From positions 1-64,000 of the forward strand of contig NZ_JAFDVE010000013.1 in the NCBI RefSeq assembly GCF_016888005.1: DNA of 64,000 bases. The letters run 5' to 3'. Shown here piece by piece: positions 56,665-59,470 of the stretch. Made by a program: the position numbers and the translations under genes. Source of the stretch: Phycicoccus sp. CSK15P-2 (GTDB lineage Bacteria > Actinomycetota > Actinomycetes > Actinomycetales > Dermatophilaceae). The stretch's first letter is position 1. Each line of letters opens with the position of its first letter. The notes under the pieces were generated by a model, which was given only the letters and a program-made list of their open reading frames with translations, made no database searches and was not told the origin of the DNA.

Positions 56665-56684
56665 GCTGAAATGTACAGTTCAGC
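56665..56684. promoter_or_regulatory. TA operator over the yefM -10
   Basis: GCTGAAATGTACAGTTCAGC is palindromic at 18 of 20 positions (core TGTACA, outer GCTGAA/TTCAGC) and contains the -10 TACAGT (56674-56679). Placement fits autorepression by YefM, with or without RelE. Confidence 0.6.
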
Positions 56685-56706
56685 TGCCATGGCGCACCGT
56701 GGGGTC

Positions 56707-56970
56707 ATGAGTGAGATCACCGTGAGCGACGCCCGGGCTCGGCTGGCCGATGTCGTCGACTCCGCCCGCGTCGGGCACGATCCCGTCTACCTGACCCGGC
56801 GCGGCCAGCGGGTGGCTGCCGTGATCGACGCCGACGACCTGGACCGGCTGATCGCCGCCGCGGAAGACTTGGCCGACATCGAGGCCGCCGCAGCAGCCCG
56901 CGCCGAGATCCAGGACGGCGAGGCGGCGATCCCGTGGGAGCAGGTCAAGGCCGACCTCGGCCTGGCATGA
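56707..56970 (+). CDS. YefM/Phd-family antitoxin
   Basis: 87 aa. EITVSDARARLADVVDSARV is the Phd/YefM DNA-binding fold, then YLTRRGQRVAAVIDADDLDRL and a C-terminal toxin-binding acidic tail. ATG 56707 agrees with the family start; ATG 56689 is an upstream option 9 nt after the -10. ATGA overlap with the relE remnant. Confidence 0.87.
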   Translation: MSEITVSDARARLADVVDSARVGHDPVYLTRRGQRVAAVIDADDLDRLIAAAEDLADIEAAAAARAEIQDGEAAIPWEQVKADLGLA

Positions 56971-57221: not shown

Positions 57222-57605
57222 TCATCTGATCCGAGGCTCGGTACCTGCCCTGATGCGGGCAGCGATGTCCGGGACGTCATCGAGCTCTCCCGACGCGACC
57301 TCGATGACGAGCGTGTAGGCCTCGTCGTTGGTGAGGGTGAGCCGGTACCCGTTCAGCCCCAAGAACGCGATGGTGCCCGCGAGGGCCAACCGCTTGTTGC
57401 CGTCGACCAACGCATGGTTGCGCGCCAGCGAGTGCAGCAGCGCGCCCGCCTTGTCCGCGAGCCCTTCGTAGGCGTCCGCGCCGAAGGCGGTCGCCTGCGG
57501 TCGCGCCAGCGCTGACTCCAGCAGCCCGTGGTCGCGCACCGGCACCTCGGGTCCGAGCGTCCGCTCGGCGACGTGCAGGAGTTCGGGCAGGGTCAGGTAG
57601 ATCAC
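57222..57605 (-). CDS. Doc/Fic-family toxin (death-on-curing)
   Basis: 127 aa. LTLPELLHVAERTLGPEVPV and the Fic/Doc motif HALVDGNKRLALAG (usual HxFxDGNKR; Phe is Leu) indicate a kinase-like Doc toxin that phosphorylates EF-Tu in E. coli P1. GTG start overlaps the antitoxin stop (GTGA). Convergent with the relE remnant. Confidence 0.88.
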   Translation of the reverse strand: MIYLTLPELLHVAERTLGPEVPVRDHGLLESALARPQATAFGADAYEGLADKAGALLHSLARNHALVDGNKRLALAGTIAFLGLNGYRLTLTNDEAYTLVIEVASGELDDVPDIAARIRAGTEPRIR

Positions 57606-57811: not shown

Positions 57812-57851
57812 ATGGTATCACCTGTGACACCAGATGTCGGCGTGGTGTCAC
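57812..57851. promoter_or_regulatory. Operator repeats of the Doc antitoxin promoter
   Basis: Three related half-sites: TGGTATCAC (57813-57821), GTGACACCA (57824-57832) and TGGTGTCAC (57843-57851). The latter two are perfect inverse copies, 10 bp apart. The first overlaps the -10. This is a likely autorepression site. The remaining 57852-58055 stretch has no recognisable feature. Confidence 0.65.
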
Positions 57852-58078
57852 GACGCCCGGACGTGCTCGGCAGGCGGCGGTGTGGGGTCAGCGTGCCAAC
57901 CAGACCTTCAGCAGTCTCACTGCCCTCACAGCCTGCCTGTGTCGCCCGTGTCAGTTTCCTGGCGTGATCGGATCGGTCTCGACGTGGCACCCTGTGTCCG
58001 TAGGGCGAAGACGCCTGACCTGGCTTATTTGTGCAGGTAAAGCATCTCTTGTGCCTGAACAGCGTGGGAGTGCGCCGA

Positions 58079-58447
58079 TGGTGGAGGTGGCGGGAATCGA
58101 ACCCGCGTCCACTGACACGTGACCAGGGCTTCTCCGGGTGCAGTGCGCTGAGGATTTTCTCGGCCCCGGGGCTCGCGCGCACACGTTCCCCGACAGGCCC
58201 AGCCGAGGTGGGAGTCCCGCGTCGCCCCTCGGCGCGACGACGCAGCAAGATCTCTAGATGACGCTGGTGACTAGGCCGAGATCATGCCCAGGCCAACGGA
58301 CTTCGGGCTCGCTCAGGCGGCGAGGGCGAAGTCGGTGCGCTTGGAATCGGCACCTGTTGGTTTGCACGGATCGTTGTACGAGATGACCGTGCGTCCTCGA
58401 CCCGCTTCCCACTGACCAGCACGTCAATGTCGAAACCGATCACCCCC
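58079..58447 (-). ncRNA. ssrA: tmRNA (ssrA)
   Basis: 369 nt. 5' end GGGGGTGATCGGTTTCGAC pairs through GGGGGTG with CACCTCC near the 3' end, which ends in GGTTCGATTCC (T arm) and CCA (58081-58079). Tag ORF at 58351-58313: resume codon GCC, tag ADSKRTDFALAA then TGA. It rescues stalled ribosomes with SmpB. Confidence 0.95.
58313..58351 (-). other. tmRNA proteolysis tag reading frame
   Basis: Twelve codons from GCC encode ADSKRTDFALAA followed by TGA. The LAA end is the ClpXP degron. Confidence 0.9.
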
Positions 58448-58471
58448 GTGAGGGGCTCACTCCCACGCTGT

Positions 58472-59470
58472 TCACTTGTTGCGGCGGGCGCCACGATGAC
58501 ATGTGCGGTCGGTGGCGTCAACCGACCTGTGGAACGCCGCACATGCCTTCCCTGTTCCCCGGCTCTTGGCGCGGGCGTGCGCCGCCGTGCGGGACGAGCC
58601 CTTCCGGTTCGTCGCCGAGGCCTTGCGCGAGGCGCCCCTCGCCTTGGCCGCCGACTTCCGGGAGCCGGCCTTCGCCTTGGCCGCCGACTTGCGCGAACCG
58701 GCCTTCGCCTTGGCCGCCGACTTCCGGGAGCCGGCTTTCGCCTTGGCCGCCGACTTGCGCGAGCCGGCCTTCGCCTTGGCCGCCGACTTCCGGGAGCTGC
58801 TCCTCGCCGTGGACGACTCGGCCACCGACGGTCTGGTCACGTTCCTCGCGCGCACCGGGTCGTTCAGGGCGGCGGTCCTGCCCGTCGAGTCCGTGGCCGC
58901 CGCCGGCTCGGAGGTCGGCTTGGTCCGCCCGTTCCCGGGACGCGTGGGCTCGGCGGTCGGCTTTCCGGGCTTGCTCGGCTGGGCCGTCGGGCGTGGCGGC
59001 TGGGCGGTGCGGCCCGGCGGGACGGCACCACCGCGCGACGGGATGCCTGACGACCGCGGCGCGGGGTCGTCCGCCGTGTCGTCGGTGCCCTGCTGCGCGT
59101 CGTCGGAGCGGTCGTCACGCTGCTGCGCCGGGGTGGTCGAGCCCGAGTCCCCCGGTGAGGTCGGTGTCCGGGAGGGAGGCGCCGTGCTCGGGGCCTCGGT
59201 CGGGCTCGGCTCGGGCGGGGTCTCCGTCGAGGGGATGTCGCCCGGGCCGAGGACGATCGGCGAGCCGGGCTCGCTCAGCAGGTCCGGGATCCCGCTCTCC
59301 TCGTAGATGTACGCCGGGACCTTCGTGATGATCCCGAGGGCCGTCAGGGCGTCCGGCTGCAGCGCGACGGCGCTGCCGAGGGCCGCGACACCGGCACAGG
59401 CGACACCGGCCGCCTGGAGCGCGCTGATGCGCGTCGGAGCGGCCGGGCGTCTCTTCCCCGGCTGGGCCAC
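58472..59470 (-). CDS. Membrane-anchored protein with histone H1-like repeat tail
   Basis: 332 aa. Basic N terminus, one hydrophobic helix (LQAAGVACAGVAALGSAVAL), a 130-residue Pro/Ser/Thr/Asp linker, then five copies of an 11-residue unit SRKSAAKAKAG and a basic, Cys-containing end. The tail composition is like histone H1/Lsr2-associated Lys-Ala repeats. No family recognised. The positive-inside rule suggests the tail is outside; it could bind DNA, teichoic acid or glycan. GTG start; TAGTGT (59477-59482, minus) ends 6 nt upstream. Confidence 0.72.
   Translation of the reverse strand: MAQPGKRRPAAPTRISALQAAGVACAGVAALGSAVALQPDALTALGIITKVPAYIYEESGIPDLLSEPGSPIVLGPGDIPSTETPPEPSPTEAPSTAPPSRTPTSPGDSGSTTPAQQRDDRSDDAQQGTDDTADDPAPRSSGIPSRGGAVPPGRTAQPPRPTAQPSKPGKPTAEPTRPGNGRTKPTSEPAAATDSTGRTAALNDPVRARNVTRPSVAESSTARSSSRKSAAKAKAGSRKSAAKAKAGSRKSAAKAKAGSRKSAAKAKAGSRKSAAKARGASRKASATNRKGSSRTAAHARAKSRGTGKACAAFHRSVDATDRTCHRGARRNK
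58635..58799 (-). repeat. Five 33-bp tandem repeats
   Basis: Units begin at 58635, 58668, 58701, 58734 and 58767. Two variants alternate (TTCCGGGAG and TTGCGCGAR at the same position), giving a 66-bp higher-order period. They encode the SRKSAAKAKAG units. Confidence 0.9.

What the first reader, a model, noticed from the sequence alone, without database searches (positions are those of the whole stretch)
58056..58474. 17-bp perfect inverted repeat enclosing the tmRNA gene: possible pre-tmRNA processing stem
Seen: TGAACAGCGTGGGAGTG at 58056-58072 recurs exactly inverted at 58458-58474, 6 nt beyond the 3' CCA and 10 nt beyond the 5' end of ssrA. In the primary transcript leader and trailer would form a long stem outside the acceptor stem, like RNase III processing stems around rRNA. 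Known tmRNA maturation in E. coli uses RNase P and exonucleases and has no such stem. One arm starts with the TGA of the upstream repeat-tail gene, so the ends of two genes are linked.
Basis: partly seen in the sequence, partly recalled or inferred. Interest (0 to 1): 0.72.

Follow-up and report, generated by a model that had tools for sequence, protein, structure and literature searches.

The report
rRNA-style processing stem around tmRNA
In this actinobacterium, apparently a Phycicoccus, the RNA that frees stuck ribosomes is transcribed inside a base-paired clamp that evolution has kept paired by matching changes on both sides, and the clamp looks like the one around the same organism's ribosomal RNAs, so both kinds of RNA may be cut out by the same route.

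Summary
It is not chance. Of 81 tmRNA genes read from the window's family, 78 leaders carry a conserved box, and in 75 of those 78 leader and trailer pair for at least 9 bp beginning at that box (mean 26 of 78 with trailers of other genera, 4 of 78 with shuffled trailers). The stem needs at least 125 Watson-Crick to Watson-Crick pair changes on the tmRNA tree, against 4-22 with swapped trailers. The box resembles the one that begins the 16S and 23S leader-trailer helices of the same genome and of relatives. Best reading: pre-tmRNA here uses the rRNA-type 'box plus leader-trailer helix' unit, most likely cut by RNase III before RNase P and trimming. Outside this family the box usually abuts tmRNA itself (110 of 177 leaders), mostly without an extra stem. 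RNase III cutting and NusA binding are inferred, not shown; the link to the upstream gene's stop codon is not conserved. It is a known kind of element on an RNA for which my literature searches listed no such description.

The parts
58079..58447 (-). ssrA (one-piece tmRNA, tag ADSKRTDFALAA, CCA encoded)
   Evidence: ARAGORN; RF00023 129.4 bits; only RF00023 hit over the cut-off in the genome (1 of 7 hits)
58458..58474 (-). leader (5') arm of the leader-trailer helix
   Evidence: covarying in relatives
58056..58072 (-). trailer (3') arm of the leader-trailer helix
   Evidence: covarying in relatives
58468..58482 (-). rrn-type box GCAACAAGTGAACAG (boxC-like), overlapping the start of the leader arm
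   Evidence: coordinates; scores at least 12/15 (row L001); the pattern AACTSAACAGYGTG with up to 1 mismatch has two places in the genome: the 16S leader (0 mismatches) and this one (1)
58448..58457 (-). 10-nt leader linker (AGCCCCTCAC) between helix and acceptor stem
58073..58078 (-). 6-nt trailer linker (TCGGCG) between CCA and helix
58533..58558 (-). sigma-R-like promoter GGAAC-N18-GTT (consensus recalled); a start from it would lie upstream of the stem
   Evidence: same arrangement in 11 of 11 congeneric tmRNA genes (shuffled expectation 0.1)
58493..58521 (-). possible weak vegetative promoter TTGACG-N17-CATCGT
   Evidence: positions; NOT found by the consensus scan; 53 of 78 family leaders carry a recognisable -10 hexamer upstream of the box (1 of 78 shuffled), this one does not
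58472..59470 (-). upstream ORF (332 aa, Lys/Ala-rich 11-residue repeat tail) whose TGA is the first triplet of the leader arm; not thought to be part of the device
   Evidence: no Pfam hit at E 0.001; stop-arm overlap not conserved

Best explanation
The inverted repeat encodes a leader-trailer helix of the tmRNA precursor. The transcript starts upstream of the leader arm, carries a single-stranded rrn-type box (boxC-like, probably a NusA contact), runs through tmRNA, and the trailer arm then pairs back to the leader right at the box. This brings the two ends of a ~370-nt RNA together beside the acceptor stem and makes a duplex (17 bp here) that RNase III most likely cuts on both strands; RNase P and 3' trimming finish the ends. 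It is the same design of unit that brackets pre-16S and pre-23S rRNA in this genome. Shown here: the helix, its conservation through paired changes, the shared box, the rRNA parallel, the presence of an RNase III gene. Inferred: start site, RNase III cutting, NusA binding, order of steps.
For: Helix exact in the window. Own genus: all 11 tmRNA genes over the cut-off (12 genomes) have both arms. Family f1: uninterrupted helix of at least 9 bp starting between box position 11 and 4 nt past the box in 75 of 78 boxed leaders, versus 18-34 of 78 with other-genus trailers and 0-8 of 78 with shuffled trailers (40 repeats each); duplex energy -30.3 native versus -20.6 swapped; minimum 125 WC-to-WC pair changes on the tmRNA tree versus mean 13 (4-22) in 20 swapped sets. 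RNAalifold on 16 chosen whole precursors gives an 11-bp leader-trailer helix with two-sided changes in 4 of 11 pairs. Box at 12/15 or better in 216 of 258 leaders versus 7 of 258 shuffled leaders and 5 of 258 trailers. Own 16S and 23S helices (16 and 18 pairs) begin in the box; likewise 9 of 9 16S and 8 of 8 23S helices tested in 9 genomes, in a scan limited to starts near the box. RNase III gene present (PF14622, E 4.4e-39). Literature: boxC lies in the RNase III processing duplex of pre-16S and NusA binds boxC in M. tuberculosis (PMC6614801 introduction); in E. coli the pre-16S leader-trailer helix, with boxC in its 5' strand, is essential for active 30S (PMC10250234 passages).
Against: No RNA end mapping, no RNase III or NusA data for this family. 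Most other families read have no such stem, so tmRNA does not need it in general. Both members of genus g27 that I read (G037, G105) have neither box nor stem. Three boxed f1 rows fail the helix criterion (L135, L137, L157). The ffs and rnpB genes of the same genome show neither box nor stem. Only 20 of 78 leaders have no other-genus trailer that pairs as well, since many genera share the core. Only 4 of 24 genomes have their ssrA box within one mismatch of TTGAGAACTNNANAG: the tmRNA box usually reads TTGACAACT, so it is similar to the rRNA box, not identical.
Confidence: 0.74

Rival explanations
1. The helix is real RNA but its job is to close the two ends and guide folding of the tRNA-like domain (or to guard the ends against exonucleases); cutting by RNase III is incidental or absent.
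For: For E. coli pre-16S the leader-trailer helix acts independently of RNase III (PMC10250234 passages). The helix sits just outside the acceptor stem and bridges ends ~370 nt apart. Uninterrupted length varies from 8 to 20 pairs, and the shorter ones would be poor RNase III substrates (recalled general knowledge).
Against: The helix must be removed to give the mature ends. In a related actinobacterium, P. acnes, the complementary regions flanking 16S and 23S rRNA show staggered cuts that its authors call likely RNase III (PMC3848588 passages).
Confidence: 0.2
2. The repeat acts as DNA: two inverted operator-like sites for a regulator that loops the gene.
For: Arms are perfect in the window, and the 5' strand core is strongly conserved among the 16 closest sequences.
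Against: Isolated imperfections in the family's arms are G-U more often than A-C (9 versus 3, with 3 others; small numbers). Arms diverge in sequence between genera while pairing is kept. The helix start is tied to a box that is also followed by helices in rRNA. One arm lies downstream of the gene.
Confidence: 0.03
3. Chance, a duplicated remnant of a mobile element, or part of a terminator.
For: None beyond the bare repeat; the consensus scan sees no intrinsic terminator at 57850-58700, so a terminator role of unusual form cannot be fully excluded.
Against: Present with compensatory changes across 48 genera and far above shuffled and swapped controls; the 17-mer occurs nowhere else with up to 2 mismatches; arms about 385 bp apart.
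Confidence: 0.02

Closest known systems
Pre-16S and pre-23S rRNA leader-trailer helices with boxC, cut by RNase III (bacterial rrn operons)
   Same: [quoted passage not shown] near-identical box letters in the same genome (AACAGCGTG shared by the own tmRNA and 16S leaders); pairing kept by covariation
   Different: Encloses a single ~370-nt tmRNA with its own promoter-like region; short linkers (10 and 6 nt here); 5' maturation presumably by RNase P; box usually TTGACAACT instead of TTGAGAACT
E. coli pre-tmRNA maturation (RNase P at 5'; RNase III or E, then RNase T and/or PH at 3'; PMC3968760 passages)
   Same: One-piece tmRNA with leader and trailer removed
   Different: No leader-trailer stem and no box around E. 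coli K-12 ssrA (best helix 7 bp, box score 10/15)
B. subtilis pre-scRNA (SRP RNA), cut by RNase III in a stem formed by its flanks (recalled, not looked up)
   Same: A small stable RNA released from a flanking duplex
   Different: Different RNA; ffs in the present genome shows neither box nor stem
M. tuberculosis NusA-boxC RNA complex (cited in PMC6614801; the RNA sequence itself is recalled, the original paper was not held)
   Same: The recalled boxC resembles the box seen here
   Different: That complex concerns rrn RNA; binding to a tmRNA leader is untested

Membership tests
rRNA-type leader-trailer processing helix | complementary sequences flanking the mature RNA form a long helix outside it | tested here: met
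   17 bp in the window; 75 of 78 boxed family members
rRNA-type leader-trailer processing helix | helix supported by compensatory change | tested here: met
rRNA-type leader-trailer processing helix | conserved rrn box at or in the 5' strand | tested here: met
   box in 78 of 81 family leaders; similar box starts 16S and 23S helices
rRNA-type leader-trailer processing helix | RNase III present in the organism | tested here: met
   one PF14622 hit, open frame of 323 aa
rRNA-type leader-trailer processing helix | staggered RNase III cuts in the helix | not testable with these tools
   no RNA data for this family
rRNA-type leader-trailer processing helix | NusA (and other Nus factor) association | not testable with these tools
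   only sequence similarity of the box
rRNA-type leader-trailer processing helix | encloses 16S or 23S rRNA in an rrn operon | tested here: not met
   encloses tmRNA; hence a variant that works like it, not a member of the rrn helices
E. coli-type tmRNA precursor | leader and trailer without leader-trailer stem | tested here: not met
circularly permuted (two-piece) tmRNA precursor | 5' and 3' segments in swapped order | tested here: not met
   RF00023 model matched from 1 to 374 in order
intrinsic terminator | short hairpin followed by T run | tested here: not met
   none found in 57850-58700

The most novel reading that the evidence does not exclude
In Actinomycetia, tmRNA belongs to the rRNA processing and transcription class: the same boxC-like, NusA-type element is followed at once by a closing helix on 16S, 23S and tmRNA precursors. 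In most families that helix is tmRNA's own acceptor stem; in Dermatophilaceae and some other families a separate leader-trailer helix has been inserted. tmRNA synthesis and maturation would then be coupled to the Nus-factor/RNase III route of ribosome assembly.
Probability: 0.45. Interest if true: 0.82.

Novelty: new variant of a known kind. Interest (0 to 1): 0.66.

Why it matters
Leader-trailer helices with boxC are known from ribosomal RNA precursors. Finding the same design, box included, around the ribosome-rescue RNA suggests that a bacterial family makes tmRNA with the rRNA machinery. That would tie ribosome production and ribosome rescue together, and it would let the role of boxC, which PMC10250234 calls unclear, be tested on one small RNA instead of an rrn operon. 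It also marks a widespread element at the 5' edge of actinobacterial tmRNA that my searches did not find described.

Tried and rejected
Terminator reading: no hairpin with T run in 57850-58700. DNA-operator reading: see rivals; the G-U versus A-C count (9 versus 3; 8 versus 3 when counted once per genus and position) leans to RNA but is small. General stable-RNA feature: two testable rnpB copies and ffs of the same genome have no box and at most 8 pairs (the third rnpB hit is cut by a contig end). E. coli control: no stem, no box. Gene-link idea (shared TGA): 7 of 10 congeneric loci have a homologue of the ORF at E below 1e-4, and in 6 of those 7 it stops 62-105 nt before the box.

Weak points and dropped rows. 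The first coordinate parser found 0 of 258 because of a wrong pattern; one search found 253 of 258; one search takes the best candidate for all 258. In a few genes whose 3' end is not CCA (L016, L069, L166 by the alignments) the parser sets the tmRNA end 3 nt early, so its CCA flags are unreliable. L283 (short trailer) was dropped. Three of 81 f1 leaders below box score 12 (L054 at 11, L149, L171) were dropped; L054 nevertheless has a 20-bp helix, L149 and L171 have none. The box consensus and the -10 hexamer list were drawn up by eye from these leaders, so their counts are not an independent test; shuffled leaders and trailers are the control. In one search, counting contiguous helices only, 64 of 81 f1 rows pass the 2% level against trailers of other families; outside f1, f5, f12 and f19, 10 of 158 rows also pass where about 3 are expected, with helices mostly far from the gene, which I did not examine. 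In one search, 20 of 78 leaders have no other-genus trailer that pairs as well and 33 of 78 are in the best 5%. The stem register is chosen by best pairing; apply the same choice to the controls. For one search I chose 16 of the sequences (11 congeners and 5 others with a similar arm); a 22-sequence alignment with six more divergent ones (with L069 on the wrong strand) was made but not folded; four cells of the helix are broken or gapped. The rule that a helix follows at once wherever the box is displaced holds strictly in 16 of 26 cases outside f1 (12 leader-trailer, 6 local hairpins, 2 of them both) against 3.1 expected, so it is a tendency. Not every tmRNA found was fetched: 258 flanks were read; some contig-edge and surplus genes were left out. 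Of the phylum sample (55 of 60 genomes outside the class) 28 new loci were read; 7 of 28 have a box at 12/15, at 0 to 57 nt from the gene, and some of these gene ends are uncertain.

Full report
What is there. On the minus strand of the window ssrA runs from 58447 to 58079 and is a one-piece tmRNA with encoded CCA. Ten nucleotides before it and six after it lie the arms of a perfect 17-bp inverted repeat (58474-58458 and 58072-58056). At up to two mismatches the 17-mer is found nowhere else in the 3.9-Mb assembly. Folding of the region gives the 17-bp helix, a 1x1 loop, three more pairs, a 6x6 loop and then the acceptor stem (z -3.83).

Where it comes from. Six congeners have tmRNA contigs of the same length as six named records: P. 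sonneratiae, P. flavus, P. jejuensis, Phycicoccus sp. HDW14, an uncultured Phycicoccus and Nostocoides sp. Soil756 (lengths, records). The window is therefore apparently a Phycicoccus-like organism. I take its family (f1 here) to be Dermatophilaceae and its class Actinomycetia; both names are inferred, as the genome handles carry none, and one of the nine records is labelled a Nocardioidaceae MAG.

Conservation. All 11 tmRNA genes over the cut-off in the genus (12 genomes; G010 has none) carry both arms. I read flanks of 81 tmRNA genes from 80 genomes of f1 (count), out of 145 found plus one. 78 of 81 leaders contain a box at 12 of 15 positions or better. In 75 of those 78, from 48 genera, leader and trailer form an uninterrupted helix of 9 to 20 pairs that starts in the last five box positions or within 4 nt after the box. 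With the same search applied to trailers of other genera 18-34 of 78 (mean 25.8) reach this, and with shuffled trailers 0-8 (mean 3.6). Mean duplex energy is -30.3 kcal/mol with the own trailer and -20.6 with other-genus trailers; 57 of 78 lie more than 3 sd below shuffled trailers. The stem sequences differ widely between genera: GCGTGGGAGTG, GTGGGATGA, CAGTGCGACGTGT, CAGTGTGAGACAC, GAGTGACATGCCCG and others, each with its partner. On a tree of the mature tmRNAs at least 125 changes from one Watson-Crick pair to another are needed over the stem positions; in 20 sets with trailers swapped between genera the same count is 4-22, mean 13. RNAalifold on whole precursors of 16 f1 members that I chose as alignable returns the helix (columns 38-48 with 441-451) with two-sided changes in 4 of its 11 pairs. 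So the helix is an RNA structure under selection.

The box. At the start of the leader arm is a box close to TTGASAACTSMACAG. Among 258 tmRNA leaders of f1 and 47 other families it scores at least 12/15 in 216, against 7 shuffled leaders and 5 trailers. In the own genome AACTSAACAGYGTG with up to one mismatch has two places, the 16S leader and ssrA (16S confirmed). A search of 24 genomes for TTGAGAACTNNANAG shows what the box is: in nine of them (G002, G008, G009, G024, G045, G062, G180, G210, G228) all 36 exact hits form 18 pairs about 2 kb apart; for five of these nine (G002, G024, G045, G062, G210) one pair each was checked and is the 16S leader and 23S spacer. The other 15 genomes also have unpaired exact hits (for example G050, G074, G278, G315), some at contig ends, which I did not examine, and G152 has no exact hit. 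One exact hit, in G092, lies 19 nt upstream of its tmRNA; G062, G020 and G349 have one-mismatch hits at 19, 47 and 0 nt from theirs. In the other 20 genomes the ssrA box differs more from the rRNA form.

The rRNA parallel. In the own rrn operon the 16S leader box continues into a 16-pair helix with the 16S trailer (ACTCAACAGCGTGTCA with TGACACGTTGTTGGGT), and the 23S spacer box into an 18-pair helix with the 23S-5S spacer (CACAGTGGACGCGAGCAT with GTGTTCGCGTCCACTGTG). The letters AACAGCGTG are common to the own tmRNA and 16S leaders. Published work places boxC in the RNase III duplex of pre-16S and describes NusA binding to boxC in M. tuberculosis (PMC6614801, introduction read), and shows that the E. 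coli leader-trailer helix with boxC in its 5' strand is essential for active 30S, apparently independent of RNase III (PMC10250234, passages read).

Other families. Outside f1, 110 of 177 leaders, in 33 of 47 families, have the box directly against the first G of tmRNA (distance -1 to 1), and there leader-trailer helices are rare (exceptions under tried and rejected). Where the box is displaced, a leader-trailer helix of at least 9 pairs follows it in 6 of 6 boxed f19 leaders, 5 of 8 f12 leaders and 1 of 2 f5 leaders, and a local hairpin in some f16, f44 and f48 leaders. Thus the box tends to be followed at once by a helix, be it the acceptor stem, a local hairpin or the leader-trailer stem. 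The simplest history is that the box at the edge of tmRNA is old in the class and that a separate helix was inserted in some lineages. Polarity is not proven.

Transcription. A sigma-R-like promoter GGAAC-N18-GTT (consensus recalled) lies at 58558-58533 (-); the arrangement GGAAY-N17-20-GTT is in 11 of 11 congeners (shuffled expectation 0.1), 57 of 80 f1 leaders long enough to test (1.4) and 82 of 176 others (2.5). Streptomyces work names ssrA among SigR regulon members (PMC4921905, one passage read). A recognisable -10 hexamer stands upstream of the box in 53 of 78 f1 leaders (1 when shuffled), though in the window only the weak TTGACG-N17-CATCGT is seen and the consensus scan did not accept it. 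Starts from these would lie upstream of the leader arm; none is mapped.

How it likely works. RNA polymerase makes the box and leader arm first; the box may hold NusA; when the trailer emerges it closes the helix next to the acceptor stem; RNase III, whose gene is present, cuts the duplex; RNase P and 3' trimming make the mature ends. Only the RNA elements and the gene are shown; the proteins' action is inferred. A rival is that the helix mainly brings the ends together for folding.

Literature. Searches of the held library with tmRNA, RNase III, precursor and 10Sa RNA (20 of 110 papers listed), pre-tmRNA, processing, leader and trailer (20 of 660), tmRNA, leader-trailer, RNase III and Actinobacteria (15 of 19), tmRNA, NusA, boxC, boxA and ssrA (12 of 36), and tmRNA precursor, pre-tmRNA and RNases III, P and E (12 of 115) listed no paper that, by title, start of abstract or the passages I read in some, describes such a stem or box around tmRNA. 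Most subscription papers are not held, so earlier description cannot be excluded. For E. coli a review states 5' cutting by RNase P and 3' cutting by RNase III or E followed by RNase T and/or PH (PMC3968760, passages).

Verdict.

Noticed in passing
window 58533-58558 (-): Sigma-R-like promoter GGAAC-N18-GTT upstream of ssrA, conserved in 11 of 11 congeners and seen in 82 of 176 leaders of other families; fits SigR control of tmRNA mentioned for Streptomyces.
   Followed up: partly
L303, L304, L305 (G000:C35:82774-83147, C2:82889-83197, C35:83914-84302): Three RNase P RNA (RF00010) matches above cut-off in one genome, two of them about 1.1 kb apart; duplication, assembly artefact or contamination (the genome is rated 4.36% contaminated).
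   Followed up: no
L154 and L155 (G045); L097 and L237 (G243): Two tmRNA genes in one genome. The G045 pair have near-identical leaders and stems; the G243 pair differ.
   Followed up: no
L149, L171 (G037, G105): The two members of genus g27 that I read have lost both box and stem.
   Followed up: no
L205, L210, L280, L287: In other families a displaced box can be followed by a hairpin inside the leader instead of a leader-trailer helix.
   Followed up: partly
window 58443-58460 (-): GTGAGCCCCTCAC just before tmRNA's G run could form a small hairpin, and its C run could pair with the G run, competing with helix and acceptor stem; many f1 leaders have a C-rich linker there.
   Followed up: no
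window 58581-58844 (-): 33-nt tandem repeats coding a Lys/Ala-rich 11-residue repeat tail in an ORF without Pfam match; homologues in congeners end in other tails.
   Followed up: no
window 56671-56970 (+) and 57222-57605 (-): Phd/YefM-type antitoxin and Fic/Doc-type toxin genes near ssrA.
   Followed up: no
flanks read: Several families (f7 0 of 8, f10 0 of 8, f9 1 of 8 by the parser) do not encode CCA in ssrA, while most f1 genes do; at least L016, L069 and L166 of f1 do not, though the parser flags them as CCA.
   Followed up: no
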